DNA of 64,000 bases from NCBI RefSeq assembly GCF_028009165.1, contig NC_079242.1, forward strand, positions 2,604,001 to 2,668,000. The letters run 5' to 3'. Below the pieces are notes generated by a model. The model did not search any database. It saw only the letters and a list, made by a program, of their open reading frames with translations, and was not told the DNA's origin. Made by a program: the position numbers and the translations under genes. Of the stretch, positions 10,993-35,984 are shown one piece after another (position 1 is the first letter of the stretch; each line of letters starts with the position of its first letter). The DNA is from Akanthomyces muscarius. Its lineage: Eukaryota; Ascomycota; Sordariomycetes; Hypocreales; Cordycipitaceae.

Positions 10993-13900
10993 CTAAATTG
11001 AGGCCGCCAGTAATTGCTCCCGAGACAGCGTCGAGCCAATATCACAAAGACTTCGGCGATTTATCTTGCCAGTTCCTGTCATGGGCAACTCATCAATTGG
11101 AACATACGAGCCTGGAATCATGTAGCTAGGCAGCACTTTGGCAAGCTCGTCATTGAGTCCTGCCGTTAGCTCCGCAACAGCCGCCTCCGAGCTGCGGTCG
11201 CTTTCCGTCCGCGGCACCGCAAAAAACACGACAAGCATGGCATTTTGCGATCCACGAGGCGTAATAAGCTCTGCGGCGAAGGGTGGGTTCGCCGCCGCTG
11301 TGATGCCGAGGTATCTTTGCACATGGTGCTCGACCTCACCGAGCTCTACACGCTGCCCGCGAATCTTGACCTGCGCATCCTTGCGCCCGATGAACTGCAG
11401 CGTTCCATCGACGTTGTGCCGCATCAGGTCGCCTGTTTTGTACAGTCGTCCGTGGCGGCCAAGCACACCCGGGGCTCCCCGCAGCAGCCAGGGCGGGTCT
11501 TGGATGAATGCAGCCGACGTTTTTTCCGCTTCGTCTAGGTATCCTTGGCCAACGAGGGGCCCTTCAATGAGAAGCTCACCAACTTGGCCGATTGGGGCGA
11601 GGAGATGTTCTCGCCCCGGGAGGACAATCCAGCCACAAACACCAAGAGGTCTTCCAATGTCGGGGTTTTGCAGGTTTTTGGATGAGATGGTGGCAAAAGC
11701 ACTCTTGAATGTGCATTCCGCAGGACCATATGTGTTTTTGATGCAAACTTTGTCCAGCCACTGGGACACCACATTGCTATTTGGTCGTTCGCCGCTAAGG
11801 AGAATAGTTTCAAGCGGAGAATGGTCCGGCGTGAGGGCCCGGAGTGCACTCGGCGTAATATTGATCAAGTTGACGCGAAGCTTGGAAAGAGTCTCATCAA
11901 TGTCATCCATCATTTCTTCCGTGGATGCAACACAAAGGCAACCGCCGGAGCAGAGGGTGTGAAGGACGTTGGACCAAGCGACGTCAAAGCTGTAGGGTGC
12001 AAAATCCAGCACGCGAGATGTGGTGCGAAAGCCGAGGCGAAACCCTTGGTAGTGTGAAGCGGCGCATACATTGGCGTGGGAGATGCATGCGCCCTTTGGA
12101 CTGCCGGTACTTCCCGAGGTGTATGTGATGAAGACCGTCTGTGAAGGGGACACCTGCGGCAGCTCCGTGGCGACGGCCATTTTCTGAGCCATGTGACCAG
12201 TGTCAACGATGAACACGGCGCCGAAATCCAGAGACCTTGCCAGGGACTCGTGCTTTTGCGAGCAGAGAATAAGTTTTCGGTCGTATTTGTCGACAATTGT
12301 TCGTAATCGAAGAAGCGGATGTGTAATGTCCAGAGCAACACAGGCGCAGCCGGCCTTCATTACTGCCAACATGGCCACTGGTGTCCACATGGACTTTCCA
12401 AAGCACAATGGTATAATAGATCCCGGCTTAACCCCAAGTTCAATTATACAATAGGCTAGTTGTGTCGAAAGTTCTCCCAGCTCGGCGTACGTCAGATCGC
12501 CGTCCCACGCGCGGACGGCCGGTGAGTCCGGTTGCCGGGAAGTTGTCTCTGAAATGACACTATGCACAGTGCGGTAAATTGGTGCAGGAACAGCTGCGTT
12601 CCAGCTCCAAATTTCCTGCAAGTCTTGCGGGCTTGCCAAGTCCAGCTCACAGACCCTGGTGGTGGCGTTGGTTGGTGAGCTTAACAACTGCACGATGTGG
12701 CCAAATTGCTCCAGCATCCTCTGTGCCTCTTTCTCATGGAAAATGGAAGAATTGAAGCCCATCTGACACTGGAGCCCTTGCGGCTTAATCCGGCAATCGA
12801 TTACCATGGCATAATTGTCGCAAGGAAAGCCAGTTGCACGGATGCTGTCGGAATTGGCTGCGAAGATTGCGTTCGGGTGCTTTCCGGGATCTTGTGTTGA
12901 GTGAACCACAATCAGAGACTGGAAACGCGACGTCTGATCTGCTTCGTCGCTTATTTTGCGCATTTTTTGCAGTCCAAAGTGGACAAACGGTATCATGTCG
13001 ACGGCCTGGCGCTGCATTTGGTGGCGCAGCTCGGCGACCGTCGATTGCCAGTTTATGGTTGCCCGAACGGGGATCGTGGATGTAGTTGGGCCGGCTATTC
13101 GTTCAATGCCGGTCAATGATGCCTGTCGACCAGTGACTGTCGTGCCAAACATTACCTCGTCTGAATCTGTATAGCGTGCAGCCAAAATTGTCCACGCCAT
13201 CGAAATCGTTGCGGCCGCGGTGCTGTCACACTCGCCCAGTTCTAGCGGACCGGCGATGGAGTTTTGCAGAGACTTTTTCGCGCGAGAGCAGGGACTAGTG
13301 CCCGGCACACTTGGAAATGCAACAGCCTTGGATCCGCGCAATTGCGCTTCCCAGAATTCCTTGGCTCGACACTCATCGACAGTTTGGACAAAGTCCTCGT
13401 ACAGCCGAAACGGCAAAAGACGAGCATGTTCCAAACCAGAGTATCTTTGTTCTATTTCGCTAAGATATAGAGTCAATGAGTAATCGTCATGTATGGCGGG
13501 ATGCAGCGCCCAGACGAAGTAGCCAACGCCATCTCCGCCTTGTTCCACGAGACCACATCGGCTCAACGGCACCCCCGTATGCTCCGCAGCAACGACAAGC
13601 TCGTCAGCGATGAGACACTCTTCAAGAGATCTCTTCGTTTCCCACGGAACCGTCTGTCGGATTACAACATTCACGAGGCCGCAGCCAGGGAGTTGTACGA
13701 CTCGCGTCCGCAGCATTGGTGTCGACTCAATTACTGCCTCGACGGCGTCTTGAAATCGTAATTTGTCGACCTTTCTCTGAAGTTCCCACTCATATCGGCA
13801 CAGGCAACTGTCGTTCGAATTGTCCACGGATGATAGACATTCTTGTTGCCATGGCGTGCACGGGAAGATGTCCTCCACGCGACTCGAGTCGACCTCGCAG

Positions 13901-14016
13901 AGCAGAGCCGCTGCTTCGGCAATCATGTCATCTCTGCTAAGCCCACACTGTAACAATGGATATCTTGAAGTCATATTCAAGAAGGTACTTGTGTTCTCCT
14001 TTTTTCTTTCTCCCAA
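10993..14016 (-). CDS. NRPS fragment: condensation-adenylation (C-A) protein without carrier domain
   Basis: Single exon, 1007 residues (993 if the second ATG at 13974 is used). Residues about 20-440 form a C domain: DIFPCTPWQQE is its first motif, but the HHxxxDG motif reads HPAIHDD, so the catalytic second His is replaced by Pro (residue 173). Residues about 470-990 form an intact A domain: A3 TSGSTGSPKG, A4/A5 FDVAWS...NTYGPAE, A7 YKTGDL, A8 KIRGQRVELGEVE and the A10 lysine in TGTGKINRR. The Asp that normally holds the alpha-amino group is present (FDVAW), so an alpha-amino acid substrate is expected; the exact residue is not predictable by eye. The protein ends about 20 residues after A10 with no T or TE domain. 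It must load a carrier in trans, and the only other NRPS gene visible is the T-C protein at 34353-35984. Confidence 0.93.
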   Translation of the reverse strand: MGERKKENTSTFLNMTSRYPLLQCGLSRDDMIAEAAALLCEVDSSRVEDIFPCTPWQQECLSSVDNSNDSCLCRYEWELQRKVDKLRFQDAVEAVIESTPMLRTRVVQLPGCGLVNVVIRQTVPWETKRSLEECLIADELVVAAEHTGVPLSRCGLVEQGGDGVGYFVWALHPAIHDDYSLTLYLSEIEQRYSGLEHARLLPFRLYEDFVQTVDECRAKEFWEAQLRGSKAVAFPSVPGTSPCSRAKKSLQNSIAGPLELGECDSTAAATISMAWTILAARYTDSDEVMFGTTVTGRQASLTGIERIAGPTTSTIPVRATINWQSTVAELRHQMQRQAVDMIPFVHFGLQKMRKISDEADQTSRFQSLIVVHSTQDPGKHPNAIFAANSDSIRATGFPCDNYAMVIDCRIKPQGLQCQMGFNSSIFHEKEAQRMLEQFGHIVQLLSSPTNATTRVCELDLASPQDLQEIWSWNAAVPAPIYRTVHSVISETTSRQPDSPAVRAWDGDLTYAELGELSTQLAYCIIELGVKPGSIIPLCFGKSMWTPVAMLAVMKAGCACVALDITHPLLRLRTIVDKYDRKLILCSQKHESLARSLDFGAVFIVDTGHMAQKMAVATELPQVSPSQTVFITYTSGSTGSPKGACISHANVCAASHYQGFRLGFRTTSRVLDFAPYSFDVAWSNVLHTLCSGGCLCVASTEEMMDDIDETLSKLRVNLINITPSALRALTPDHSPLETILLSGERPNSNVVSQWLDKVCIKNTYGPAECTFKSAFATISSKNLQNPDIGRPLGVCGWIVLPGREHLLAPIGQVGELLIEGPLVGQGYLDEAEKTSAAFIQDPPWLLRGAPGVLGRHGRLYKTGDLMRHNVDGTLQFIGRKDAQVKIRGQRVELGEVEHHVQRYLGITAAANPPFAAELITPRGSQNAMLVVFFAVPRTESDRSSEAAVAELTAGLNDELAKVLPSYMIPGSYVPIDELPMTGTGKINRRSLCDIGSTLSREQLLAASI

Positions 14017-14065
14017 TGTATTTGGCGCTGCTTTTGAGCGCAGTGTATGGCGAGATCTGAGAGCT

Positions 14066-14446
14066 TCAAATACACGAATGTGAAATCTGTTGTGAAGGAA
14101 GAATGCACGAAACTCTTATAGCTTGAGAAAGTAGGTTCCGGTCTGTTACCATCGTACTTGCCAGTCGGGATGAAAACATCCACACAACAATTAGGACCAT
14201 CTCGCCCTGCGCTTGCGTTGCTATAGTTGGCCCTCCTAATACATTATCCACCCAAACAGTTGCGAGCGTTTTCTCTTTCACTATTTCTGAAAACTCGGAT
14301 AGTATAACAAAAGCTGCAATCGAATGCAACATGATTGAAGTACCCACCAAGGGCGCACCAAGGGCGCTCATATTTGGGACGGCAAAGAAAACGATCAGAT
14401 AACCAAGAAGAGTAGTCACCGAGCGGGTTTTGCATGAGCTGTCCAT
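14066..14446 (-). CDS. Possible small integral membrane protein
   Basis: An open frame of about 126 residues (ATG at 14446) with two or three hydrophobic segments (LLGYLIVFFAVPNM, LHSIAAFVIL, MVLIVVWMF). It lies just upstream of the C-A gene on the same strand, so it overlaps that gene's likely promoter. No family recognised. It may be a remnant or chance. Confidence 0.25.
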   Translation of the reverse strand: MDSSCKTRSVTTLLGYLIVFFAVPNMSALGAPLVGTSIMLHSIAAFVILSEFSEIVKEKTLATVWVDNVLGGPTIATQAQGEMVLIVVWMFSSRLASTMVTDRNLLSQAIRVSCILPSQQISHSCI

Positions 14447-15194
14447 CTTTCTTCTCCGTCCTTCTTCGCAATATTCGAACTGCATTTACTTCTGCATCGC
14501 GATGTTGTAAAAACCAAATGCGCATGTCTCGTCCCGTTTTGGTTGATTAAAATCTACGAAATCCGGGGAAATAACCAGTGGGCGTTTGATACGGCCTCAA
14601 GTACAAGTATTCCGAGTCTTTTCAGGGGGGCGCACTGGAGAGCTTCCACGGGTTGTGATATGCTATTGTATATACTTCTCTTTTAATTGTCTTCCAGCTT
14701 TAGTTTGTATTCAATTTTTCCCTCTGCTCAGGTTAATTGCGATAAATCGTCACGGCTGTTGTAAACACAGGCCAACCCGGTCGCGCAGACGCCACAAAGC
14801 CGGGTGCGGACAAGCACTCCATTATCAGCTGCGGGTAAACTCTTACAAGGTTGAGTTAGCTTCTCAGTAAGTTGACCTATTTCTAGACTATGGAAAGATG
14901 TAAAAGCAGGGGGGCATTTTCAGCGTGATGGCTATAGGGTAGTGAGCTGTAGCATTTTTTTGACGGTTAAATCTTTTTTTTCCATGTCCAATGCCTAGAG
15001 AAAAGGTGAATGCATCGTGATTGACTGTGCGAAAAAGCTTTCTCTGTGTAGTTGGGTATGAGGCAGGCTGAGCGTATATACTTCCTCGACTCTTCCGTCT
15101 GCAGCAAGCGTGTCCAGCCACGGCTATTTGACGAATCTCCCAGTGTGTGATAGCTACAGTTCTGTCGACCAATTTTGTATGTATCCGTCCCCGT
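14447..15194. other. Intergenic region, no gene seen
   Basis: About 750 bp between the TRI3 stop and the C-A upstream region. AT-rich patches only. No conserved coding sequence recognised. Confidence 0.5.
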
Positions 15195-17009
15195 TCACGC
15201 CATAAAGACCAGTATAAAGTCGGTGATTGACTTGAGAAAAGCTTGTACCACTGCTTTGGTGTAGTTGGCCTCGTTGTAGATGATGCTTACCGTGGAGGCA
15301 TCTTTCCAGCTGTCAAGTCGGATTGCCCTGCGTTATCGTCAGCGCCATGTCAAGTCATTGAGTGGGTTGTTCTGGGAAGCACTAACAGATAGGGAAGCAT
15401 CTGGTTCACGAGGAAGCTAAACCTCTCCACGGTAAAAATGGTCTCTGCCGTCGCACTCGAGACTATGTCGCGCGGAAGGAAGCGTTCGTTAATTCCGTCA
15501 CTGATAAACAACTGTTTAAAAAGGTCAGTTTGTTAGCTTGCGTATCACTCTAGGTCACAAATGAGACATACCGGGTTGGCCTCTTTTTTCTGAAACGGTA
15601 TCGGGTTTCTGTTGCGGGCTCCAGTCAGCTTTATTCAGTCTCCATTGGCAAATTGCGAAGGTTCGGGTCCTAACGCACGCTTGCAAGTAGCTTGCTTCAA
15701 AGTTATGTACCCTCAGTCCAAGCGCTTGCTGGTACGGATTTTTGAGCCACTGGTCATATGAAGCCTTGACGTCCCGACAAGCACGCTCCAGGGCCTTGAC
15801 CTGTGTCTCCGACGAATCTTCATGGCTGACGTGAATGGACTTGAGATTCTCGACCCGCACGACGGCGGCGGTCTGGCACATGGAGTAAAAGCTGTTTGCT
15901 ACTTCTGGCCGCATCCATCGGCGGCCATCCACCGACGTTGGTGTTACAAAGACCTCGTCGTCGGTCAAATCCGTGGGCTTGAGGGTGTCCAACAGAGCGA
16001 GCAAAATTGCGGCCTGTGTAAGGTGCGTGATGGTAAACTCGGGACCAAGACGGGTCTTGATATTCTTGATGACAGATTTGGAGTTTTCGGCGCTAAGCGT
16101 CAGAAGCTCGCAGCGTGGTAATCCAAGCCCTGGTGTAAACGGAAGGCCTCGGCTGCTCTGAAAAGGCTTTTGTTAGCTAAAGCGTACTTGCGACGGAAAA
16201 GGGAAGAACTTTACATAATTGCCAACAAGCGCGGATGTATATTCTTTGCACTTGTTATCGAACTCTGCGCCCAAGGTTTCGACGTCGATAGACAATGAAT
16301 CGAGAATAGGCGGACAGAGATTCTTTACCTCTTGTCCCCAATTGAACTTTGGCGCGCTCTGTCCAACTGGGAGACTAAGAAAGTCGCTCAAAATGCGAAA
16401 TAAATCCCCGACAAACATACGACAGCTGATACCGTCCCAGAAAAGGTGGTTTGTATGGATCAAAACATCTACAGCAGCGCCCGCAGGGATACGGGCGTCC
16501 TGATGGAGAACATTCGCGAGTAGGAACACCTCAAATGACTTTGATGGTATGATGACATTATTCGCAGACCTTTCCATCTCCAGCTCGCCCCAAACATCGT
16601 ATGCGCTTCTCGTGGTAGGCTGGATATGGATGCAGTCTTTTGCCCAGGCGAGAGCTGCTTCATTGTCTTTGGGCGGCTGATACGAGATGATGGCGGACAC
16701 GTGCTCATCCCACGACACTGTGGCCGCGCATTCAGGGTGTTGAAAGCGAGCGGCCAGCAGAGCCAGTTCAAACTTCTCTTTCAGGTGTGCAAGGGTCAGG
16801 ACTGTGGCGGAAGTGACCGGAACTACCGTTTCGAGAGTGGCAACCATGTAAAGATCATACTGGCCCTTTCTGTTCTGCCCCTCCAGCCCAACAATTGCCT
16901 CGGCGCCGACGCTACGACGCTGAATGCTGTGCTCATTGGTGTTGGATTTCTCCCATCTATGTGCCTTCGGTGCCAAGGCTGGGAGCTCGGTAGCGGATGG
17001 GACAGTCAT
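15195..17009 (-). CDS. TRI3: Trichothecene 15-O-acetyltransferase family protein
   Basis: Five exons: 17009-16215, 16157-15679, 15608-15572, 15511-15387 and 15327-15195 (522 residues). All phases agree and the stop is TGA at 15197-15195. The start at 17009 is chosen because upstream codons in the same frame are unlike the family. The acyltransferase motif is NHLFWDG (HxxxD), with strong TRI3-family blocks such as FWDGISCRMFVGDLFR, SPTSVDGRRW-like VTPTSVDGRRW and LGLRVHNFEASYL. In Fusarium TRI3 acetylates the C-15 hydroxyl of the trichothecene; in other genera its substrate varies. The third exon is only 37 nt. TRI3 is divergent from the MFS transporter gene. Its presence implies a C-15 (or equivalent) hydroxyl, which one of the CYP65 enzymes could supply. 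Confidence 0.95.
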
Positions 17010-17855
17010 TGCTTGCGATGCCGAATGACGATGGGCGCGCACTGCTTCGCAGAAGAAGAAGAAGACCCAAGAGAGTCGGTGGAAAATGAAGTCTTTTGAA
17101 AATCCCAATAGATTGCGCAACGGCATTGACATGCGTTGTGTACTATCGAAAACCTTGGAGTGGTTCTACGCTTTGCCAGGGCTGGGACTAATGACTGACA
17201 TACCTCTAGCTCACGGCTCTATTTATATCTTTGGCATGTCATTTATACGGCCGGGCAGGACTCTGCAGCTGTGGATCTCAAATATGCATCATTGTGTGGC
17301 CGGCACTTAGGTTGTTAGCAATGAAGAAGAAGCCACAGGCTGATGGACACATTGGGGGGCAGGTGCATGGTTAGGGCGTCGTCACCACAGTCGGGTGCAG
17401 CTCCCTGGCGGACGGGATTATCAGGTCTACAGGCTTCATTAGTGACTGGCAACTCAAAATATCTGTTTCTTGACTGGTGTAGTGCAGCTCTAACGTGGGT
17501 GGCTTGCCCGCTGTCTCAGCCGAGATTGAGCCCGTGCCTTGGAATATGTGAGCATCAAGTCAATATTTCTCAGTGTGACATAGAACTCGTTTGCATCACG
17601 TCACGTGCCGCTCAAGAGCTTTACCGAAATCAAAGAAGACACTCAGTGCCAAATTTTGACGCACACTCGCTGCTTTGTGCCATCTCTTTGTCGTCCTCGA
17701 CACTGGCTACACCAAACGCTCCCATCGCACCAGACGCACGACGTTGAACAACAGCGCTTGAAACGCTACTACTCCCACGACATCGACTCCGTGCCACGAC
17801 AGGTCAATTTCTGACGAGCCATCTCGGTAGCGAAGTTTCCACTACTTTGGCGACC
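17010..17855. promoter_or_regulatory. Divergent TRI3/MFS promoter
   Basis: 846 bp. CTATTTATAT at about 17218-17227 is a TATA-like element toward TRI3. Open frames in the region look like chance. No shared motif identified by eye. Confidence 0.45.
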
Positions 17856-19487
17856 ATGGTCATTGGCGAGGAGCGGCCTCTGCTCTCCGCGAGAGAGGTC
17901 CCTGAGGACGGCAGCCCTCGCGACAGCACCGACGCAACAGCCGCACAAGACGTCGAAGCATACAACATCGCCGACGACCCAATTGAGTGGCCGAAGTCTT
18001 TCAAATGGGTAGTCATAGCGCTTCTCTCGTTCATGGCCTTTACTGTGTATTTACTACCCCTCCCTCCCCCTGCCGCAACCGCCACAACCTGCTAATCGCC
18101 GAATTCCAACATGCAGTACATTTGCTTGCCTATCAATTATGCCCTCAGCAAACCACATCGTACGCGACCTCGGCCACGGCAAGTCTAACAAAGCCGCCAG
18201 TGTCTTGCTCATCACCGTGTGGGAGCTGGGCGAGGCAGCAGGACCTCTTTTCATCGCTCCCTTGTCGGAAACATTTGGTCGATATGCTGTTCTCAATGCA
18301 TCAAACATTCTGTTTCTAATCGCGAATGTGATGACGGCGTTGTCTACCAATGTTTCTCTGCTCATCACCATGCGCGCTGTCACCGGTTTCGCTGTCGCCT
18401 CCAACGTGCTTAACCCAGCCATCATTGGCGACATGTTGGTACCTGAGCAGCGCGGCAAAGCAATGACCGTCATCATCATCGTGCCAATGATTGCAAGTGC
18501 CATGGGGCCAGCCATCGGCGGTGCTGTTGCTGATGGACTGGGCTGGCGCCAGGTCGTCTGGATCAATGTGGCCCTTGCTTGTGTGTGTCAGATCCCCCTC
18601 TTTGCCTTTCTGAAGGAGACGTATAGAGCCCCATCCAAACAAGACGCTCTATCAGTTCAGCGCAGTGATGCCGACGATGGAAATGCTACGGGCGCAACTC
18701 CGCAAACACCAGACGGCAAAACAGCCATGCGCAGCTTCTGGGATTTGGCGATAAGACCGGCGAGTATCTTGTGCAGTTCTAGGGTCCTTGTCATGCTCTG
18801 CCTCTGTCACAGCCTCGACTTTGTCTTTTATTACGTCATGGTCACCACGTTGCCAGATATTCTGCAGGACGTATACGGCCAATCTTTGAGCAGCACGGGC
18901 TTTACCTTCATCTATTTCAGTGAGAACCCGTTCCTTTTCTTCTCTACTGAGGCTGAAGCTAATTCTTTCATTTTTGTGTTTTAGCCCTAGGCTCAGGGTG
19001 TGGCCTGTTGTTCTGCAACGTGACACTCGACAAACTCTACAAGAAGCTTCGAGACGGTAACCATGGCCAAGAAAAACCCGAGTTTCGCCTGCCATTGGCT
19101 ATTGTAGGCGCCATTGGAGTACCAGCTGCGGTTCTGCTTTACGGCTGGACAGCGTCTTTGCACTTGCCGTTAATATATCTCCGGCTCTCACTCCTGCTAC
19201 TGGGAATGTCGACTTGCTTTTCTGGCATGTCTGTGTATACATATGTTGTCGATGCCTTTGGTGCCTATTCCGCATCCGCCATGGCCGGCGTCATTGTCAT
19301 GAGATCTGTCATGGGGGCATTTGTACCATTGATCACTGTACCTCTTATTAACGCTCTCGGATATGGACGGGGCTTTACGACCCTGAGCTTGGCAAGTCTT
19401 TCTCTGGCCCCTATACCAGTACTGGTCATGAGGTATGGGGCAGTGTGGCGGCAGTCATCCAAATTCACGAGGCAGCCCACGGATTGA
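17856..19487 (+). CDS. MFS exporter, DHA1 (12-TM drug:H+ antiporter) type
   Basis: Exons 17856-18046, 18117-18919 and 18985-19487 (498 residues) with consistent phases. An acidic N-terminal tail ends in DDPIEWPKSFKW, typical of fungal DHA1 pumps. The family motif region reads WELGEAAGPLFIAPLSETFGR and motif C-like glycines lie in IASAMGPAIGG. About 12 hydrophobic helices are seen, with the long central loop at QDALSVQRSD. It likely exports the cluster product at the plasma membrane, giving self-protection. The Fusarium trichothecene pump TRI12 belongs to the longer 14-TM (DHA2) group, so this is a different transporter recruited to the cluster rather than TRI12. Confidence 0.9.
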
Positions 19488-19642
19488 ACATCGAACATGG
19501 CATTCACCCTGGTATTGTTCCTGTATGATAGTGAATTCGAATTATCCCTCCTGAGATTCTCTCGTTCCACTGCTTTTTCCCACTATCGTTCCGAGGATCG
19601 CAATTGCGCATGCTACATGGCCGACTCATGTCACAGTACTTC

Positions 19643-21130
19643 TCATGGCTCGGATTCAACGCCTTGAAAATCGAACCATTCTCTCACATCTGGGTCCTGA
19701 AGGAGGCCGCTCATGGCTGCATTTTCCACAGGCACGAGATACTCAAAAACATCCTCGAGAGTGCCTGCCACACGCTTTTTTGGCAAGACAACCAGCACCG
19801 GCATGACGCCAAAAAGGTGCCTCAAGCCCGTGGGTCTTCCGAAGCCAAAATCAGCGTCATGGACATTGTGCGCGCGCCAGTCGTTGACAGTAAATGCAAG
19901 CGGGCTGCCGGCTCCGTGGGCTTGATTTACGTCGGCGGCCTGGTGCCGATCTCGTTCTATTTGGTCGAACTGCTCCTCAATGAAAGCTGCATCCACAGAG
20001 TTGGTAATGCTGCGAATATATGTAGCTATAGTGCCGAGCGAAGCCGACTCCATGACATCCGCGAGTGTGAGCTTGTGCTGCTGGGTCGCAGAGGTAGCGA
20101 ATAAGACGGCGTTCCCAAGGTAGCGGTCGGGCAATGGCGGCACCAATTTGCGGCGTAGATTAACGGCTTCCGTAAAATCGGCCACTGCGTCTAGCGAATG
20201 CAGCCTCTGAAACTTGGCTCGAGTCCTGGTCAAGACACGCCACCAGAGCGCGACAAAGGCGTCGTACGAGGAGATGCGGCAGGAGTCTAGGCCTGCCTGG
20301 GACGTGACAAGCACCTTGAGAGCTTCCGCCTTGCTCTTGCTCAGGTGGAATAAACACACCGAGATGGACAGATTCTCAGTTGGATCGACGGCAGAGTCCA
20401 CAAGGGCGGAGTCCGCAACCGCCACTTCCGCCTGCACCGGGGCTTTCTCATCATTGGTGACTTGCGCATCTGTGGCAATGTGGGACTTGCACAGGAGACG
20501 ACTCCGATCCAGACAAGCAGGGGACAGTTCCGGACCTGGGACATGACACGTGAGAGCATACGTATCGCCGGCCCATTGGTGGACAAATCCAGCCAAGGCG
20601 CAGTAGTCCATGGCCCAATGGTGGAAGTGGATGGCAAGGGCGATGCCACCCGGAATCAGATTCGCCTGAACACCAATAACGGGCGGACTATGGCCCGGGT
20701 CTGCGCTCCCTTGGCCGTACGGCAGAGTCTGTACGCGCAAGTGTGCTTTGTCACTGCAGTTTGGAATGAGGAAGTGATTGGCTTCGAGGCTGTCGTAAGA
20801 TGCAAATGCGAGTTGGCCGGTCTCGTCGTGATCGAGTCGATTATGGATGAAGTCAACAGTACCCTCTTGTCTGGACAAGATGTAATAGTCTCCTGCCTTG
20901 TCTCGCTCAATCGTACCGGCCAAGAAGCGACACTGGCGCAATGTCCTCTCCAGTCCGGCTACGAGTAGCTGGGTTGTATCATGTTTGCTTTCATCGGGAG
21001 CGCGAAAGAACAAGCAAACTGGTACGTACACGGGTTTCCGATTCAGTAAGTCATTAGTAGAGAGCTTGAACCTCTGCTGGCTAATGTTTGGATAACCTGA
21101 AGGGTGGACGCGATACACTTGCACGTCCAT
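19643..21130 (-). CDS. BAHD-type acyltransferase
   Basis: Single exon, 495 residues. HxxxD catalytic motif HHWAMD (near residue 168) and the C-terminal DFGFGRP version of DFGWG. Short N-terminal motif LSTNDLLNRKPVYVP. It is distinct from both TRI3 and TRI101, so it probably acylates a further hydroxyl of the trichothecene. TRI18, the acyltransferase that adds polyketide-derived side chains in Trichoderma, is the closest functional idea. There is no PKS gene in this window to supply such a chain, so the donor is unknown. The 3' end lies 155 bp from the convergent MFS gene. Confidence 0.85.
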   Translation of the reverse strand: MDVQVYRVHPSGYPNISQQRFKLSTNDLLNRKPVYVPVCLFFRAPDESKHDTTQLLVAGLERTLRQCRFLAGTIERDKAGDYYILSRQEGTVDFIHNRLDHDETGQLAFASYDSLEANHFLIPNCSDKAHLRVQTLPYGQGSADPGHSPPVIGVQANLIPGGIALAIHFHHWAMDYCALAGFVHQWAGDTYALTCHVPGPELSPACLDRSRLLCKSHIATDAQVTNDEKAPVQAEVAVADSALVDSAVDPTENLSISVCLFHLSKSKAEALKVLVTSQAGLDSCRISSYDAFVALWWRVLTRTRAKFQRLHSLDAVADFTEAVNLRRKLVPPLPDRYLGNAVLFATSATQQHKLTLADVMESASLGTIATYIRSITNSVDAAFIEEQFDQIERDRHQAADVNQAHGAGSPLAFTVNDWRAHNVHDADFGFGRPTGLRHLFGVMPVLVVLPKKRVAGTLEDVFEYLVPVENAAMSGLLQDPDVREWFDFQGVESEP

Positions 21131-22938
21131 GATTTTAATTTTTGAAGGGATTGGAGCCGGTCTGTATTACAGTACCCATGCACAAGTCAAGATTGAGGTG
21201 TTCATTTATACAATTGCCAAGCTGGATGCCGAAACTGGACGGTACTGATTGGTCGTATTACATAATTTTTGCTTCTTGTTCAAGGCGCGAATTTGCTCTT
21301 TTCCCTCTCAGCGCCTTGGTTTCGCAACCAGTCAATCATGCAGTGACAAAGCCTCTCCGTCTGAGCTGGCTCCCTCTGTGCTAGCGAGAGGTCGACTGTA
21401 GCAATTATTGAAGGAATCCCGCGCTATCCATTAGCAGGTCAGAAACATAAATATTGTCAAACAAGCGTCGGGTATTGTGTTGGCAGTTGAACAAGGACAC
21501 AAGATAATCCGGTTTACAATGTGTTATCACTGTTCTCCGTGTCAATGTCAGTCGTGCTCCTGTGGGGGACTTTCGCTCGCCAGCATACAGCATATGCAAG
21601 CAGACTTGATAGTGTAAGTCAAGACACAGGACTGGACGACGAATCATGAGAAGCCGATAATACCTGCATTAGTTATCGTTAGTGAGCTATTTGTTAGTCG
21701 CTGTCCATGCAGATTCTAGCGGGCCATTGATTGGTGGCGTAATGCCACTAATTAGGAGCGGCCGTCCTCAACGATGCCGAGTTACTGGTTGTTGAGGGAA
21801 CGGTACATTCTGATTAATAGGAAACGCACTCCATAATACCAAAGTACAAGCTATAACATATGTTCCTTCACCTTGCATAATTTTGTACGGGGGATTCCAT
21901 GGGCAGACCCCCGAAGAAAATACCGACCAAAGAAATTTCGTAACACCGAGTCCTACGTTCTACGACAGGACATTAGGCCTGGGCGCCTCATTTCTTCCCA
22001 CACCTACGGCACATTTCCTGTGCAGTCCATTGAATAGCAACATTGAAACCTTGTAACTAGAAAGCATCGAGTCATTTTATAAAGACAGTCTCGAACTTGA
22101 TTCCTATCGTTATGGCGTCTTGCGCCTGGCGAAGAGAGCTCGCGGTGATGGTTTAGGGGCAAGATTTGGTTGATTTTCATCTATGAAACGGCCCTCCACC
22201 ACTGAAACTCTGGGTCAGTGTAGGCGAAAGACAAGAACCAGCCACCAGCGCCTCTAGCCCGCCTGTGTTGAGGCCGTGTCGCTGAGCAAGTAAGTCATTG
22301 ATGAAAGAAGCAAAAACTGCAGGATGAATGGCGAAAGAATATGTGGACAAGTTATGCATAGATGATGCGTAAATAATGCACAAGTATATAACACGCGATT
22401 GGCCAGCTAGGCTGAGGCAATCTTGGTTCCGCTTTGGCGACATCGGAATGAGCCGCCGCCGTCTAATTCATGAAACGAGATCATCTGGATAAATGCTCCG
22501 TTTGAGGACAGCTCCGCTTTTGTGATGAGCATTCATGGCCATTCCACAGAGAGTCTGTCCGGTTGATGCGTGGCATGTCTAAGCAAGAGTCGGACAAAGT
22601 TGTCCACAACTGTACGCATGGCGAACAAGCTACTTGTTGCTTTCCTACGCTCCTTATTGGCCATGAGCCCTGAAGCTGTACTTGTAACAAAGTAACTGCG
22701 CCCGCAATCTACACAAAATCCACTCTATGCCCTGCCTCCCGCATTCTGGCTGGGGTAAAATGCACAGCAACTCGTCGCTGGTCAGCCTGCATTTCGTGGG
22801 ACAAGCTCCTTCTGCTCTTTCGACTCAGCTATAATTGGGCGCTTTTCTTTCTTCAAGCTTCGCGCAGCTGACGTTCAGCAGTTCCGGTAGCTCGCGCGAA
22901 CTGAATCACTACACTCTCAATCGAGAAAAAGCCCAAGC
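21131..22938. other. 1.8-kb divergent intergenic region
   Basis: Lies between the acyltransferase (leftward) and the first CYP65 gene (rightward). Open frames here are short and show no family signal. CT-rich DNA at about 22795-22860 fits a fungal promoter/5' leader. The decamer AGTTCCGGTA occurs at about 22882. Confidence 0.5.
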
Positions 22939-24514
22939 ATGGCCGCCGATCTCATTAACATAGTCAAGGTGCTAGTGTCCATTTACCTAGTATCATCTGT
23001 TGGCCGGATCCTGTATAGCCTCTATCTCCATCCACTCAGCAAATTCCCTGGTCCCAAGATATGGATCGCTTTCCCGCTTCTGCGGCAGATTGCCCACATC
23101 CGTGGCCTTCTCGATGCGCGCCTGTGTGATTTCCATCGCGCCTATGGTCCAGTGGTCCGCTTTGGACCAGGCGAAGTTTCATTCATTACGGAAGATGCCT
23201 GGCGCGACATCTACGATCACAAGCCCAACCAGTTGCAGCGATTCATCCTCCCGACCGCGCGGCGACCGGACATTTTTGACTCTAATGAGGCTGATCACGA
23301 TCGCTACCGCAAGGCCATGTCTCATTCATTTTCGCCTAGGGGTCTCATGCAGCAGGAGCCCGTCGTCAAGGGCTACATTGACATGCTAATGGGCCGACTC
23401 CACGAGCAAGCCGCGCGCGGGGCCAGCGTTGACATGACCATGTGGTACACCTTGACGCTCTTCGACGTGATTGGCGACCTTGCGTTTGGCCAGTCGTTTG
23501 GCGGCCTGCGCGACCAGGTCATCCACAGCACCATTTCCTTCACTTTTGAGGCATTCAAGCTGCTAACCTACCTCGAGGCTGGCGCGAGCTTTCCCCTTCT
23601 GTTCAAGCTCCTACAGCTATGGACGCCCAAGCGGCTGATTGAGGCGCGTGATCGCAAAGAGGCCCATGCCGAGGAGACGGTGCGCCGCAGGATGGCCGAC
23701 AAATCGCTCCACGGTCGCGGCGACTTCCTCGACTCCATGATGCGGTATGAAGGCACGCCGCAGGGCCTCAACGAAAAAGAGCTCATTGCCAACGCAAGCA
23801 CTCTCATTGTAGCTGGAAGCGAAACAACGTCCACAATCCTGAGCGGCCTGACCTTTTATCTTCTGCGCAACCCCGACGCGTACAAGAAAGTGGCCGACGA
23901 GGTGCGCTCAGCTTACGCCGCCGAAGCCGAAATTGTCATGAGCACCACAGCCCAACGCCTACCGTACATGTCAGCCTGTTTCCAGGAGGCGTTCAGACTA
24001 TATCCGCCTGTGCCCAGCGGGTTGCAGCGAGTTGCGCCCCCGGACGGAAAGACGATAGTCGCGGGCCATGAGATTCCTCCAAATGTAAGAAGTCCCTGAA
24101 CTGCGCCAGAAAGAAGCAGCCCAATGGCTTGACAATAACTGCATTTTAACACTGGTTCTCTAGACGAAAGTATTTGTCCATCCTTTGGCAGCCTATACGG
24201 ACCCGAGCAACTGGCACAAACCAGACTCATTTTCACCTGAAAGATGGCTCCCAGACGCCAAGTCGGACCCGTCGTCACCCTTCTACAAGGACTGCCGCAA
24301 TGTCTGCCAGCCCTTCTCCGTCGGGCCCCGGTCATGCCCCGGCCGCAATATGGCAGAGCAAGAATACCGTTTGACCATGGCCCGCATTCTCTGGAACTTT
24401 GATCTGCAGCTTTGCTTGGAGAGCAAAGACTGGACCCAGCAAAGGACACATTACCTCTGGGAGAAAAGGCCGTTGATGTGTAGACTGAGGAGTCGATCCG
24501 CAGAGGCGCAGTAA
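22939..24514 (+). CDS. Cytochrome P450, CYP65 type (TRI11 class)
   Basis: Exons 22939-24084 and 24164-24514 (498 residues), intron 79 bp. N-terminal membrane anchor, hinge LHPLSKFPGPK, I-helix AGSETTS, ExxR as EAFR, PERW motif SPERW, and heme loop FSVGPRSCPGRN. CYP65 hallmark block MWYTLTLFDVIGDLAFGQSF. TRI11 (CYP65A1) hydroxylates C-15 in Fusarium and C-4 in Trichoderma, so this enzyme probably hydroxylates the trichothecene ring, but the position cannot be read from sequence. It is followed in the same direction by a second CYP65 gene. Either one could be the TRI11 counterpart. Confidence 0.9.
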
Positions 24515-27523: not shown

Positions 27524-28006
27524 ATGTCGATCCAGTCGACAGCGCCGGCATCTCCCAGGGTCTCAAATAAGAAGGTTAATTTGGCTATAAGTACCGTCAC
27601 CGCTGCCTCTCCCAGTGCTCAAAGAATTGAGTACCTGCGCCCTCGAGCAAAGCTACCACTGACCAGGGGGCCGGCTTTGCATCTGGTCAGCATCGGAAGG
27701 AGCCCTCTGCGCAGCCGGTAGCCACCGATGTCTACGACCTTCTATCAGAGCTCCGGTACGCAGCAATTCCCCTCCAGTCTCGAGAGGATGCTTGAGCGGA
27801 GTCACAGCAAGGTGGGCGCCAAAGGGCGCCCGAAAAAAAGGGTCAACCGCGTCGCATACAACATTGCAAAGCTAGAAGTTGAGGTCATCGATATGAGGCG
27901 TGAAAGGGATAAGCTGCGGGATCAGCTGGCGAGAAAGAAAGCCGAGGCGGCCACTTTGAGAGAAATGCTGAAATTGCCAAATTCTGGCAGAATAAATGCA
28001 ACTTAA
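27524..28006 (+). CDS. Small basic coiled-coil protein, possible bZIP-like regulator fragment
   Basis: The supported part is 27728-28006 (92 residues, ATG preceded by an in-frame stop). A basic patch KGRPKKR, resembling an AT-hook or the lead-in of fungal bZIP basic regions, is followed by about 45 residues with heptad spacing of hydrophobics (AKLEVEVIDMRRERDKLRDQ and on), a good coiled coil. The canonical bZIP N-x7-R core is not seen. A Ser/Pro-rich frame (27524-27721) ends seven bases upstream in another frame and might be an upstream exon or an unrelated leader. Candidate small regulator. Function unknown. Confidence 0.4.
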
Positions 28007-30082: not shown

Positions 30083-32270
30083 ATGGTCTGGCCGGATCAA
30101 TCACGGCAGTCCTTCCATGGCATGACAACAGAAGGCTATGCTGCTCGGTTTATCAAAGCCATGCAGTCGCTGCTTGATGAGAGGGATGCCTCCAAAATTG
30201 ATACCTTGGCCCAGCGACTGAGCCCTTTCAGAATTGACCTGCAACACAAACATGTTCTGGACACTCTGACGATTGAGCCCACGCTCGTGTTCGAGGAAAA
30301 CCAACAACCGGCACAGTATGTTTCTGCTTTTGTATTTGTGAACCCTTTGGCATGCTGGCACAAACTCTGGGTTCTGCAGATTTCTGAGGTTTGTCTAGGA
30401 TTGACACTCTGGATCCAAGTTGCCTGTCGTACATGACTCCAAACAGAAGCGTCTGTTCGCGAGGCAATCAGGATGATACGACCGGACCGACACAGGAAGA
30501 GAGTATTTTCGTACCCGCGGTAGAGGCCACGACAACCCACCGTTTTTTGCCCATTCTAGGCTCCCTTGTTCACAGCGAAAGCACAACTGAAGATGAAAGC
30601 ATGGACACGACCGTGGACTGCTCGGCGACGACCCAGGTTTGACTGCCTCCCCTCGACACCTTTTCTTTCCGTTTGTGTCCATTCACTTGTCATTGGCTCA
30701 TTTGCTTCGTCCCTTCATCCTCTACCTTTTTTACTTTTATTTTCCCCGGGTTTCATCTCATCCATTGAATGATACATGTTTCAAAAGAGGAGTCTAACAC
30801 GGTCGTCAAAAGACCGACGAATGCAGCCAAGAGACCGCCCGCACTCCGGAATCCTTCTTTACCATTAGCGATGGTGCAATGCTGCGGCCTGTTTCCAGAC
30901 AAGGTAAGTCTACTGAGCTTACCACAGCAAGGTTTCCAAGCCGCACGCTGCGTCTGTTTCATGCATGCTTTACTGACACTTTTTTACAGAATCGCTTTCC
31001 GCGGGCGCATCTGGCCACCCGCTATCGCATTGGTGCCAGGATACCGTCGACGGGTATTACGCGTTTGATGAAGGTCTGCGGGTTGAAGCCGTCCCACATG
31101 CCCTCCAATATAATCAAGGGGCGGTGACGACACCCTATAGCCATCCAACTCATTCGTCTCCTCCCCCACTACACTCTGTATCCATTTCCTCTGAGCTGCA
31201 GCAGCAGGAGGAAGAGCCAGAACGATCGCAAGCCAAAGGCAGACTGACACGTCAGTCTGCAGTCATGGCGTCGTCGAGTGTGACTGCGACCTCGATTATG
31301 GCCAATGAAGCAGCCAATTTAACAAATGCACGCGTCGGCCATCCGTCTGCCATCTCCCAGCGCGCGAACTCGATGAGAGCTGCACCTTCTGCCGTCAGTT
31401 TGGACGACACGACTCGTCAGACGACGCCTGGCAGCAGTCGAGGCGCCCTGTCGAATGAGGCCGTGCAAAAGGTAGTATTCACTGCTCACACTTGCATTTC
31501 CATCCAAAGCATTCAATTCTTGGAAACGAATCTGGAGCGGTGGTGTCGGAATGGCCTGTGGCGCAACTCATCTCCGCTAAACATGACGACCAGCTTGAGC
31601 GGGTACGAAAAGCTGCAGAGGGCGTACTCTTTTGTCTGCAGGTTGGATACGCGCATGAGCGAAGATGCTATTCGCAGTCGAATGGCCATGGTGACGCTGC
31701 ATCTGGAGTACGAGAATACGTGGAAGACCAAGCCGAGCAAGCCGAATGGCGCCTCAACCAGTGTCGGCCGGGGCCACACAAGCTCCATCATCGACAGAAT
31801 CCTTGAAAGTGTTCACAAGAACTGGGCCGAGTGCGAGCCGCGGGAGAGGGCCGCGCTGCGCACCAAGTTTCACGAGTGGAAGCGCTTCGGAAAGCGCTGG
31901 TGGCAGCTGGCTAGTATCTTGGGTCCTAGCATAATGCTTCTCTCCTCGGCACGATTTGCTGGCATGATGTATGCGCGCCCTCGCCCCTCCCTTCATGCAA
32001 GACTTTTTATGAATTCTTTCCTGTGATGTGCTGCTAACGAATTCGTCCCTACGAAGTAAAAATACCACGATTACGACGGCCATGCTCAGCGCCTTGGGAC
32101 GCAGAATCGAGGCTACCGAGCCGCACATCATGTCAGCTCTACGGCTAGCGGATCCTGTCACCAAAAGTCTTTTTTGCAATAAGGGCTATGAGAATCATGA
32201 CATTAAACTACTTTTGGCACAGCTGCGCGAGACTGGTGCCCATTTGAGAGAAGCTGGGGTTGTTCACTAG
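30083..32270 (+). CDS. Unrecognised multi-exon protein of the cluster
   Basis: A five-exon model with consistent phases: 30083-30315, 30447-30636, 30813-30903, 30990-31968 and 32057-32270 (568 residues). The last intron has a textbook TGCTAAC branch site. The 30637 donor (GTTTGA) and 30812 acceptor (CAAAAG) are weak, so exons 1-2 and 3-5 could be two genes; the CT-rich DNA at 30650-30770 would then be the second promoter. The N-terminal half is Ser/Thr-rich and low complexity. The C-terminal 250 residues are helical, with a Trp-rich core (FLETNLERWCRNGLW, HEWKRFGKRWWQLA). No signal peptide, membrane segment or zinc finger is seen. A regulatory role would fit, but I do not recognise the family. 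Confidence 0.5.
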
Positions 32271-32501: not shown

Positions 32502-33681
32502 TCAACTAAGCAAAGCCTCGATATCTTCCGTCAAGTCTTGAAATACAAAGTGGCTGCTGTGTCCGGCCACAGTGATGTTGGCGCCGTCGGTGGGTAGCGA
32601 GACCAGATAGATGCGGTTAGCCATTTGTCGAGCGCAAGTTGCTAGGCTATTGCCCCTGCGGCTGGGTAGAAAACCCAAAAACTCGATCTGACGAAATGAT
32701 TTGTTCTGTGAGCGATAAACGCCCACTCCGCCTGCCGGGTGCTCGGGCGTCATGTTCTCTGTCGCCAACAGGACAGTGCTGTTGTATTTTTCGGGGATGG
32801 CGAGCACATTGGAGGTGTTGAAGTTGTGATGGGGCGTCTGCTGAATAATGACTGGCGGCGTGCCGTCTGAGTTCTGCGTGTCGAACCGGACAAACTGCCC
32901 AATGGTATTGTCGTTGCTGATTATGGCGTGGCCAGCATGGGTGATGCCCGTGAAGCCGTACGGGCGAGGCAAACCCAACGGCTCCTCGACGAACAGTGTA
33001 GAAATCTCCCTCTCTGGCGTGACTCGCAGGATATTGGACTTGTAAACGCCAAGCACATACGTGTTGCCATCACTACCCAACTCGGCGTCGGCGTACCCTG
33101 CATACAGCCCATTGTTGAGATGGAGTTTGTGCGTCACGGTCATTGTGTCAATGTCCATGGTGATCAGGTAGTCTGGTCCCGAAATGTTCACGCCGGCCGA
33201 ATAAAATGCATCGCCATTGTCAATGACCAGCTCCAAAGTCTCGGGCTCGTCGTTATTCGGTCTCAGGACGATGCCGCTGGCGTGGAGCGGGTTCACAGCC
33301 GTGTCCCCAGGATGGCTCAGTCCCGGAAACTGGATAGTCTCGAGGACTTTGGGTTGATACGGGTCAAAGACACTCAGACTAGCATTGTAGAGGTTGCTAA
33401 AGATTTGAGAACCGTCAAGTCAGTAGAGAAGCTTTTTTTCACTGGCGTGAGGGAAAGGCGTTATATCTTGATGGAAGAGGGGTTCTTTTCACGTACCTGA
33501 CATACGCGACGCAACGTTTCTTATCCCACTGAAAAATTTCGGGATAACCCATATACACGTCGTAAATGAGGTCTCCTTTGGGCAGAGGTGGGCATGCGTG
33601 CTGCAGCCGGTAGTTGAGCCAGGAATCGGGGAAAATGCTACCCACGGAGGAAAGACTGCTCAATACAATCTGTGGTAACAT
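32502..33681 (-). CDS. TRI14: Trichothecene cluster protein 14, beta-propeller-like
   Basis: Exons 33681-33497 and 33396-32502 (359 residues), intron 100 bp. The start at 33681 is chosen because the family-like sequence begins at MLPQIVLSS. Repeated strand-rich blocks with Asp/Gly turns suggest a six-bladed (SMP-30/TolB-like) propeller, and diagnostic TRI14 blocks include GYPEIFQWDKK, HASGIVLRP and NGLYAGYADAELGSDG. TRI14 lies in Fusarium and other TRI clusters. It is reported to affect virulence, and no enzymatic activity has been assigned. The N-terminus is only weakly hydrophobic, so secretion is uncertain. It is one of the best markers that this is a true TRI cluster. Confidence 0.92.
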
Positions 33682-34352
33682 TGTGGCAATGTGAGTACGC
33701 TCGTCCTGAATTTTATTGTAGATGCTAAAATCATACGGACTTAAAAGGCGTTGAGCCCCCTGTGATTCGTGTGAGCCTTCGCCTTTACTTATATGCACAG
33801 ACTGTGTCGGCTAGCTCTATGATGAGCTCAACGAAACAGCAAAATCGGAAACAACAGCCTCTCACTTATTTGTGGCGAAGACATGAAGCTACTTCACCGC
33901 TATCAGCCCAACCGACAAGCCGATGCTGAGACATTTGTGCGGCCTGACTACGGGGTCTTTCATATTTGATCCATGCCACGCTCACAGCCCTACTATCCGC
34001 ATGTGCTTCACACCCACTTCTCAGAACCACGAACGCGTTGGCGGTAGTGCCCATAAGTGCTTGTTGATATCCATACTTCTAAAAATGTTATAGGTCAATT
34101 TTCAATGCTTTATTGTACGAGATCATGTATGTCATATCCACCCTCGACTAACAGACTCAATTTCTAGATATGCCTTGCGTATTAGCACTTGTCCAGCGGC
34201 CAGGGAAGAACAACAGACGCCGGCCGAGGCCACTTAGCTCTCAAAGACGAGTGTGACTATCAATTTCTCTATATATTAATCTCAAACTTGGAATCCACTC
34301 GTATTTCCCATCATTGCGGCGGAAAGAATCGCACAATTCGCGTCAGTCCTGT
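33682..34352. other. Intergenic region TRI14 / T-C NRPS
   Basis: 671 bp holding the TRI14 promoter and the 3' flank of the T-C gene. No gene recognised. Confidence 0.5.
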
Positions 34353-35984
34353 CTATACATCTGCCGTGGCGACGACAAGAGCCAGTGTGTCCGAAATTTT
34401 GTCCAAATACCCGGATGTACAGTGTGACGCATTGCCACTTAATACGATTTGCCAAGTGCCATCTACAGGGCTAGCAACCATCCAAATCGCTTCAGAGTGC
34501 TCCCACACACCGCGAGGCTCGTGTGTCAGCAATGGCGTCTGCACCCCGTCGCCGAGCAAGTCAATCGATCGAGAGTCAAGATCATGAAAGTGGACATTGT
34601 ACATCATCTTTTGATGCTCCTCTGGCCAATTTGTACAGGTTCTGTAGATATCTTGCAGAGTCGCCATCTCTGCGGGCAGCATATCAAGCTGCGCCTGCCG
34701 CACGAGACCCACGGTCGTGATGAAACTCGGTTCTGGTGGCAATACCACTCGCAGAGGCACCTGATTGAGGCAAGGGCCGACTATGTTGTCCAGACTTCCA
34801 GGGAGAAGGGTCCGACCAGAAACTGTGAGGCTGAAGTGGACATCTCGGGTGTCGTGGAGGCGAGCCAGGGTCTCGGCACATGTGGCTAGAAAAACACTGG
34901 CTTCGGTAGAGTCAGACACCTTGGGAGGACATTGTATCACGCTTGTGCTTGTCAATATCCGGCTCTGATCTCCTGTGGGCTGGAGAGGCAAAGGTTTAGA
35001 GCCTAGGAGTGTCATCCTCCAATGCTGCAGCGTTTGTTCGTTCTTCTCGTAGACGTGGGCAACATAGTCGACAAACTTTGGAATGATAGGCCACGGCTTT
35101 TTTTGCAATGTAGCCGCAAGGCACTCCAAGAGTGGAGGGAGACTCATCCCGTCGTAATGTGCATGAGATAGGCGCAAGGCCAGGCGTGTGGGGATTCCCG
35201 AACGGTGAAGCACTATAAACTTTGTCCAGAGCGCTCCTGGCTCCAAGGTAGACTGAATGCTCTCCGCAAATATTCGTTCGGATTTCTCGTGGAGATTTTC
35301 CGTTTCGCTGACGGTATGGATTTGTAGAGGCGCGGGAGACTGCGCTGTGACGACTTGCAAAAGATCGCTCGAATCAGGCCGTTGGATAAAGACTGTCCTC
35401 AACATATCGATTTGATCCCACAGCTCCTGAGCAAAGGCAGCGATGGTCTCAAGCTGAGCTGATTCTGGTATGTCAATGTAAAAAATGTAGAAGCCTTGAG
35501 GCGGCGTGTACATGGCGGCCTCGGCACAGAGCGCTTGCGTGTGTGTCGTCGGCGCGATGTCGCGCACTTGGCTCGTCGGAGTGCACAGGGTCGGAGCAAT
35601 CTGCGCGAGAAGGTCGTCAAGCTCGCTCTTCGAAAGATGCAGGAGACTGAAAGGCTCCGTTTGGGGGCAAGCAGTAGTCACTCCAGTAGCCGCCTCTTCA
35701 AGCTCTTTGGACTGAGTGATAAACGAAGACGCCACAGCACTGGACGAAGAAACGTGTGCCGCCACATCGGCGAGTGACTTGTTCGTGAGAAGCGTGGCTA
35801 CCGGAACGACTACTTCAGCTGCCTTGCAGCGTGGGCTTACGCGCATGGCAGAAATGGAGTCGCCACCATTAGCCACAAAGGAACGCTCGAGGTTGATGTT
35901 GGAGGCTGGTACTTGGAGCACGAAGCTGCAGGCATCGCGGAGCACACGCTCCGTATCGGTGACTGGTTCTCGAAATTCAGGCAT
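34353..35984 (-). CDS. NRPS fragment: carrier-condensation (T-C) didomain protein
   Basis: Single exon, 543 residues. Residues about 8-80 form a peptidyl carrier domain with the phosphopantetheine serine in FVANGGDSISAM (Ser43). A linker leads to a condensation domain (about 115-540) whose HHxxxDG motif reads SHAHYDG: the catalytic His274 and Asp278 are kept. There is no A domain, so the T domain must be loaded by another protein. The C-A protein of this cluster lacks exactly this T domain. Fungal terminal C domains can release a thioester-bound acyl group onto an amine or alcohol, so this protein is the likely transfer partner that attaches an amino acid to a trichothecene hydroxyl. A small intermolecular dipeptide or ester is the alternative. 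It is on the same strand as the esterase upstream and as TRI14 downstream. Confidence 0.93.
   Translation of the reverse strand: MPEFREPVTDTERVLRDACSFVLQVPASNINLERSFVANGGDSISAMRVSPRCKAAEVVVPVATLLTNKSLADVAAHVSSSSAVASSFITQSKELEEAATGVTTACPQTEPFSLLHLSKSELDDLLAQIAPTLCTPTSQVRDIAPTTHTQALCAEAAMYTPPQGFYIFYIDIPESAQLETIAAFAQELWDQIDMLRTVFIQRPDSSDLLQVVTAQSPAPLQIHTVSETENLHEKSERIFAESIQSTLEPGALWTKFIVLHRSGIPTRLALRLSHAHYDGMSLPPLLECLAATLQKKPWPIIPKFVDYVAHVYEKNEQTLQHWRMTLLGSKPLPLQPTGDQSRILTSTSVIQCPPKVSDSTEASVFLATCAETLARLHDTRDVHFSLTVSGRTLLPGSLDNIVGPCLNQVPLRVVLPPEPSFITTVGLVRQAQLDMLPAEMATLQDIYRTCTNWPEEHQKMMYNVHFHDLDSRSIDLLGDGVQTPLLTHEPRGVWEHSEAIWMVASPVDGTWQIVLSGNASHCTSGYLDKISDTLALVVATADV

What the first reader, a model, noticed from the sequence alone, without database searches (positions are those of the whole stretch)
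10993..35984. A nonribosomal peptide synthetase split into C-A and T-C proteins within a trichothecene cluster
Seen: a C-A protein ends just after the A10 motif with no carrier domain, and 20 kb away on the same strand a T-C didomain protein has a carrier but no A domain. Together they equal one C-A-T-C module. Both lie between TRI genes (TRI4/TRI3 and TRI14). Known: A-T-C-type modules in fungi can esterify terpenes with amino acids. Inference: this cluster makes an aminoacylated, alkaloid-like trichothecene through an in-trans module. I know of no TRI cluster described with an NRPS.
Basis: partly seen in the sequence, partly recalled or inferred. Interest (0 to 1): 0.95.

Follow-up and report, generated by a model that had tools for sequence, protein, structure and literature searches.

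The report
Two-protein NRPS inside trichothecene cluster
A fungal trichothecene gene cluster carries two intact peptide-synthetase pieces, an activating protein and a carrier-plus-ester-forming protein, which probably work together to attach an amino acid to the terpene; a second such cluster in the same genome has the equivalent parts joined in one protein.

Summary
The window has a C-A protein (1040-aa frame, 10993-14115, -) and a T-C protein (613-aa frame, 34353-36194, -) in a TRI cluster (TRI5, TRI101, TRI3 by profile and PDB match). New here: the same genome has a second TRI-type locus (contig C6) with trichodiene synthase, TRI3 and P450 homologues and one 2461-aa NRPS ending C-A-T-C. The C domain of T-C is sister to that NRPS's terminal C domain (100/100), far from the other C domains compared. 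Best reading: the A domain of C-A loads an alpha-amino acid onto T-C in trans, and T-C esterifies a trichothecene hydroxyl, as AneB does for aculene and Fum10/Fum14 for fumonisin. Limits: C-A is only weakly placed beside its C6 counterpart; the T domain of T-C groups with T domains that precede epimerase-type domains; the C domain of C-A has lost its catalytic His; loading and product are untested. So it is a rebuilt rather than simply cut module. A terpene+NRPS 'deoxynivalenol-like' cluster in Beauveria is already in print (PMC13313595), so an NRPS in such a cluster is not new; the two-protein anatomy is not in the text I could read.

The parts
10993..14115 (-). C-A NRPS protein (coding from about 13974): C domain with HPAIHDD in place of HHxxxDG, then a complete A domain (A3, A5, A7, A8, A10 motifs); no carrier
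34353..36194 (-). T-C didomain protein (coding from about 35984): T with GGDSI, then a CT-type C domain with SHAHYDGMS; no A domain
4364..5808 (-). TRI5, trichodiene synthase (two exons), DDSRD and NDLLSFYKE motifs present
6291..7694 (+). TRI101-like 3-O-acetyltransferase
   Evidence: PDB 2zba, E 9.9e-111
8091..9980 (-). cytochrome P450 in several exons; called TRI4 by position and recall (Pfam says p450 only, on the largest exon); C6 homologue 48% identical on that exon
15555..17165 (-). TRI3 acyltransferase (two exons)
18019..19484 (+). MFS transporter (first exon: MFS_1 101.6 bits, TRI12 only 36.8 bits)
19643..21166 (-). acyltransferase of the Transferase/TRI-like_N family
22891..24514 (+). 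cytochrome P450
25294..27076 (+). further cytochrome P450 in exons
32502..33810 (-). TRI14-like gene (name from recall only; no Pfam match over cut-off, no PDB match)
36726..37846 (-). alpha/beta hydrolase (Abhydrolase_3) next to T-C; homologue at the C6 locus

Best explanation
C-A and T-C form a two-protein esterifying module of the trichothecene pathway. The A domain of C-A adenylates one alpha-amino acid and loads it in trans onto the pantetheine arm of T-C (inferred). The C domain of T-C then uses the His and Asp of its SHAHYDG motif to let a hydroxyl of the trichothecene core attack the thioester, releasing an aminoacyl trichothecene ester (inferred from AneB and Fum14). The C domain of C-A has lost its catalytic His and probably serves only as a platform for the A domain, so one residue, not a peptide, is attached. 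The paralogous C6 cluster does the corresponding job with one bimodular NRPS, probably adding two residues (inferred). Shown: gene content, domain order, motif state, kinship of the two terminal C domains and their presence at both trichodiene synthase loci. Not shown: expression, loading, amino acid, acceptor hydroxyl.
For: Both proteins are intact, with complete A motifs and the T Ser. The genome search found two TRI5 loci and at both there is an NRPS with this terminal C domain: T-C matches C6 at 533.6 bits, 50%, while the best of the other matches is 118.7 bits (37 matches in all, self included); tree 100/100 (21 C domains). At C6 the corresponding parts are fused as C-A-T-C in a 2461-aa NRPS beside TRI5, TRI3, P450 and hydrolase homologues. 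C-A's A domain passes the amino-acid adenylation model TIGR01733 (335.7 against a cut-off of 317.4). T-C's motif keeps His and Asp at the spacing that AneB needs (H794, D798; the first residue of its motif is dispensable), and AneB's T-C didomain makes its ester from L-Pro-SNAC (PMC10720950, section 18 read). A separate A protein loading a T-C protein for esterification is described in fungi: Fum10 and Fum14 (PMC8902786, section 16 read). Nearest solved match is TqaA with its fungal CT domain. The C domain of C-A has lost the catalytic His that the other 12 of 13 internal C domains compared keep (clades, motifs).
Against: C-A is not closest to C6 by score: three C3 modules score higher (705.9, 700.5, 685.3 against 673.1 bits); its A domain has its highest identity with a C10 A domain (46%). 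Its sister relation to C6 module 2 is 92/88 (A) and 63/75 (C+A), neither starred, and its front C domain is unresolved. The T of T-C groups with pre-epimerase T domains of another NRPS locus (97/99), not with the C6 T domain. No shared promoter word beyond chance and no TRI6-type motif excess. No product is known; B. bassiana and Cordyceps confragosa cultures gave no detectable trichothecene (PMC5897003 section 10).
Confidence: 0.55

Rival explanations
1. T-C is the esterifying enzyme but is loaded by some other A domain (for example of the C10 NRPSs, whose T domains it resembles), and C-A serves another carrier or has another use.
For: The T domain of T-C groups with two C10 T domains at 97/99; C-A is only weakly tied to C6 module 2; the genome has many other A and T domains (37 and 47 matches).
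Against: C-A and T-C lie in one cluster and each lacks just what the other has; at the C6 locus an A domain of this kind stands directly before the T-C unit.
Confidence: 0.2
2. The NRPS proteins make a small peptide or diketopiperazine that is separate from the trichothecene, and merely share the locus.
For: The CT domain of TqaA cyclises a peptide (PMC10720950 section 18); no product is known; no co-regulation motif found.
Against: This terminal C domain is found at both trichodiene synthase loci, with no other match at comparable score in the genome; C-A's own C domain lacks the catalytic His, so peptide bond formation by it is unlikely.
Confidence: 0.13
3. Both genes are relics of a former NRPS on the way to loss; the C domain of C-A is the first part to decay.
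For: HPxxxDD in C-A; reversed gene order and mixed descent of T-C.
Against: Both frames are intact over 2982 and 1632 bp, with base composition by codon position like TRI101; the A motifs, the T Ser and the T-C His/Asp are kept.
Confidence: 0.1

Closest known systems
Fum10 + Fum14 (fumonisin tricarballylate esterification)
   Same: A separate A protein loads a T-C protein, whose C domain forms an ester with a non-peptide core (PMC8902786 section 16)
   Different: Fum10 is a standalone A domain acting on aconitic acid, and fumonisin is a polyketide-derived core (the last from recall); here the A partner carries a C domain and looks specific for an alpha-amino acid, and the core is a terpene. 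Fum10 and Fum14 sequences were not compared
AneB, ThmA, FlvI (single-module NRPSs of terpene-amino acid hybrids)
   Same: NRPS esterifies an amino acid in a sesquiterpene pathway; AneB has an xHxxxDxxS motif with needed His and Asp; an alpha/beta hydrolase gene sits in the aculene cluster too (PMC10720950 sections 4 and 18)
   Different: Those are one protein; here two proteins with a degenerate C domain in front. Their sequences were not at hand to compare
Beauveria 'deoxynivalenol-like' terpene+NRPS cluster (PMC13313595, 2026)
   Same: Deoxynivalenol-like cluster with NRPS and terpene synthase core genes; two alternative terpene synthase orthogroups
   Different: Reported at antiSMASH and orthogroup level; the main text does not hold the word 'adenylation' and section 25 speaks of one NRPS core gene, no split, no mechanism. 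Its Fig 5b and tables were not seen; it may be the same or a kindred cluster
TRI clusters of B. bassiana and Cordyceps confragosa (PMC5897003)
   Same: TRI3, TRI4, TRI5, TRI14 and TRI101 homologues; consecutive TRI5/TRI101 locus tags in B. bassiana and C. cicadae are given in PMC7354514
   Different: One TRI locus per genome there; the main text names peptide synthetases only in its introduction; its S2 Fig gene tables were not seen
TqaA terminal CT domain
   Same: Best solved match of T-C (C domain E 2.4e-19; T domain E 4.1e-4)
   Different: TqaA's CT domain cyclises a tripeptidyl thioester (PMC10720950 section 18)

Membership tests
Fungal terpene-amino acid esterifying NRPS (AneB type) | A, T and C domains present | tested here: met
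   present, but on two proteins
Fungal terpene-amino acid esterifying NRPS (AneB type) | A-T-C on a single polypeptide | tested here: not met
   C-A and T-C are separate genes 20.4 kb apart
Fungal terpene-amino acid esterifying NRPS (AneB type) | C domain with xHxxxDxxS, His and Asp kept | tested here: met
   SHAHYDGMS in T-C
Fungal terpene-amino acid esterifying NRPS (AneB type) | Terpene synthase and P450s in the same cluster | tested here: met
   TRI5 and three P450 genes
Fungal terpene-amino acid esterifying NRPS (AneB type) | Aminoacyl ester product | not testable with these tools
   needs metabolite data
Fum10/Fum14-type split A and T-C pair | T-C protein without A domain and an A protein without carrier in one cluster | tested here: met
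   the A protein has an added C domain
Fum10/Fum14-type split A and T-C pair | Sequence kinship with Fum10/Fum14 | not tested
   no sequences at hand; protein database off
Trichothecene (TRI) cluster | Trichodiene synthase, TRI3, TRI101 homologues clustered | tested here: met
Trichothecene (TRI) cluster | TRI14 homologue | tested here: inconclusive
   candidate 32502-33810 named from recall; no family match over cut-off
One split ancestral C-A-T-C module shared with C6 | All four domains sister to their C6 counterparts | tested here: not met
   terminal C yes, 100/100; A 92/88, not starred; front C unresolved; T no, 97/99 elsewhere

The most novel reading that the evidence does not exclude
One fungus runs two trichothecene-type pathways, each with its own NRPS of a C-domain clade dedicated to trichodiene-derived alcohols: one adds a dipeptide with a bimodular NRPS, the other adds a single amino acid with a module rebuilt as two proteins, its carrier domain borrowed from an epimerising NRPS. 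The products would be nitrogen-bearing trichothecenes, of which my one phrase search found no mention in the papers it listed.
Probability: 0.35. Interest if true: 0.8.

Novelty: new variant of a known kind. Interest (0 to 1): 0.62.

Why it matters
The trichothecene side chains in the review passages I read (acetyl, isovaleryl, polyketide-derived; PMC8902786) are put on by acyltransferases. An NRPS route would put nitrogen on the core by another chemistry and could explain why insect-associated fungi with working TRI genes gave no detectable trichothecene in culture (PMC5897003; the authors blame culture conditions): the expected compounds may have been the wrong ones (inference). Having a fused and a two-protein version in one genome also gives a natural pair for studying how a fungal NRPS module is taken apart and rebuilt.

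Tried and rejected
One gene broken by an insertion, a missed intron or an assembly fault: rejected, because T-C lies 5' of C-A on the coding strand and no remnants were found. Simple split of the C6-type module: weakened, because the T domain groups elsewhere and C-A is only weakly placed. Shared promoter word: the best 8-mers are in 5 of 13 promoters, while random flank segments reach 5 or more in 199 of 200 draws; YNAGGCC (recalled TRI6 site) has 7 hits in 13 promoters against about 10.5 expected (start codons were approximate, and two divergent gene pairs share their upstream DNA, which inflates shared words). Substrate code: by eye and with recalled GrsA numbering, the A domain of C-A has the Asp that binds the amino group; I could match the rest to no code, so no amino acid is named. 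Paper searches: the phrases 'nitrogen-containing trichothecene', 'trichothecene alkaloid' and 'aminoacyl trichothecene' had no occurrence in the 15 of 33 papers listed. Searches for TRI clusters with an NRPS gave listings in which I recognised none; PMC13313595 was already in the listing, unrecognised, and came to light through locus tags. A search for split fungal NRPSs listed one bacterial case.
Full report
Observation. The window is G000:C2:2604001-2668000 of a 36.2-Mb, 12-contig assembly. The frame 10993-14115 (-) holds Condensation and AMP-binding domains and no carrier; the frame 34353-36194 (-) holds a carrier and a Condensation domain and no A domain. Both are intact from a plausible start to the stop. 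Five T domains and three A domains used as tblastn queries gave these two genes and otherwise nothing better than E 0.13, so no remnants were found. On the coding strand T-C comes first, so the two cannot be one gene interrupted by 20 kb.

Setting. TRI5 (Pfam TRI5; PDB trichodiene synthase), a TRI101-like acetyltransferase and TRI3 are well supported. Three P450 genes, an MFS transporter, an acyltransferase and an alpha/beta hydrolase are named by family only. TRI4 and TRI14 are labels from position and recall. TRI5 and TRI101 stand side by side, as their consecutive locus tags do in B. bassiana and C. cicadae (PMC7354514, passages read), which suggests but does not show a Cordycipitaceae host.

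A second TRI-type locus. The genome has a second trichodiene synthase at C6:953590-954730, 52% and 60% identical to the window's on the two exons, with DDxxD- and NSE-type motifs and a strong PDB match to trichodiene synthase. Within 15 kb of it lie a P450 (48% to the window's TRI4-like gene on the largest exon), a TRI3 homologue (36% and 38%), a hydrolase homologue (31% and 43%) and a 2461-aa NRPS. Pfam gives that NRPS two A, two T and C domains; read with the alignment of its residues 60-824 to the second half of C plus A of C-A, the order is partial C - A - T - C - A - T - C. Its residues 968-1928 match C-A (37%) and 1952-2461 match T-C (47%).

Descent of the parts. Genome-wide, T-C matches the C6 NRPS at 533.6 bits and 50% identity; the best other match is 118.7 bits (37 matches, self included). 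Among 21 C domains with at least 70% coverage in the loci held (the genome has 62 Condensation matches, so this is a part), the two terminal C domains are sisters at 100/100. For C-A the picture is weaker: three modules of a C3 NRPS score above the C6 module (47 matches), its A domain is most identical to a C10 A domain (46%), and trees join it with C6 A2 at 92/88 (17 A domains) and 63/75 (12 C+A rows), neither starred. The T domain goes elsewhere: among 15 T domains it groups at 97/99 with two C10 T domains. Both of these are followed by a domain with HHLVIDLVSW and RTVGWF, which I take for epimerase signatures (recalled); none of the 21 C domains has either. The T-C protein is therefore of mixed descent.

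Catalytic state. In the 21 C domains, 12 of the 13 of the internal clade read HHxxxD; the exception is C-A with HPAIHDD. All 8 of the terminal clade keep the second His and the Asp; T-C reads SHAHYDGMS (clades, motifs). AneB, which esterifies proline onto aculene, reads QHxxxDxxS, needs H794 and D798, does not need the first residue, and its T-C didomain makes the ester from L-Pro-SNAC (PMC10720950, sections 4 and 18 and abstract read). The A domain of C-A has the A3, A5, A7, A8 and A10 motifs and passes TIGR01733.

Mechanism. The simplest working unit is A (on C-A) plus T-C, with the front C domain as a platform. Fungi already use such a pair: Fum10, a standalone A domain, loads Fum14, a T-C protein, which is held to form the fumonisin esters (PMC8902786, section 16 read). 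I put loading in trans and esterification of a trichothecene hydroxyl at 0.55. That this terminal C domain is found at both trichodiene synthase loci, with no other match of comparable score in the genome, is the main reason to link it to the terpene.

Literature. PMC13313595 (June 2026; section 25 read, passages of the abstract and section 31 seen) reports a 'deoxynivalenol-like' cluster with NRPS and terpene core genes in Beauveria and suggests a hybrid or novel product. So an NRPS in a TRI-type cluster is in print. The text I read gives no domain order, split or mechanism; its figure and tables were not seen. PMC5897003 (section 6 part 1 and section 10 read, other passages) found working TRI4, TRI101 and TRI22 from B. 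bassiana but no trichothecene in cultures; its main text mentions peptide synthetases once, in the introduction, and its S2 Fig was not seen. None of my 10 paper searches listed a paper that I recognised as describing a two-protein NRPS in a TRI cluster; that is a statement about titles and abstract starts in those listings.

Verdict. Real, intact and interesting: a new variant of the fungal terpene-amino acid esterifying NRPS, in two proteins, within a TRI cluster. The product and the partnership remain to be shown.

Noticed in passing
G000:C6:939225-965625 (L021-L023): Second TRI-type cluster with bimodular NRPS, trichodiene synthase, TRI3 and P450 homologues, ABC transporter and hydrolase; in the 80 kb compared, no homologue of the window's TRI101 or TRI14-like frames was found at E 1e-6.
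   Followed up: partly
G000:C6:903469-904393 (L013): Short C-domain frames with an in-frame TAA (or an intron), about 35 kb from the second TRI-type NRPS; no A or T match in the frames of 150 aa or more of L013. Perhaps a relic.
   Followed up: partly
G000:C10:1275000-1294900 (L029, L030, L038, L042, L046): Three neighbouring NRPS frames (1280, 2653 and 2605 aa); the two long ones have the same order of matches and both carry an epimerase-type domain after their last T domain, so they look like duplicates.
   Followed up: partly
window 1875-2990: Beta-lactamase-fold gene (PF00144, 133 bits) beside TRI5; such proteins can be esterases or acyltransferases (recalled).
   Followed up: no
window 27722-28006: Basic stretch followed by a coiled coil, bZIP-like by eye, no Pfam match over cut-off; a candidate local regulator.
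   Followed up: no
window 30977-32026: 349-aa frame with no Pfam match.
   Followed up: no
whole assembly G000: No 5.8S rRNA match in the assembly, so the species could not be named that way.
   Followed up: yes
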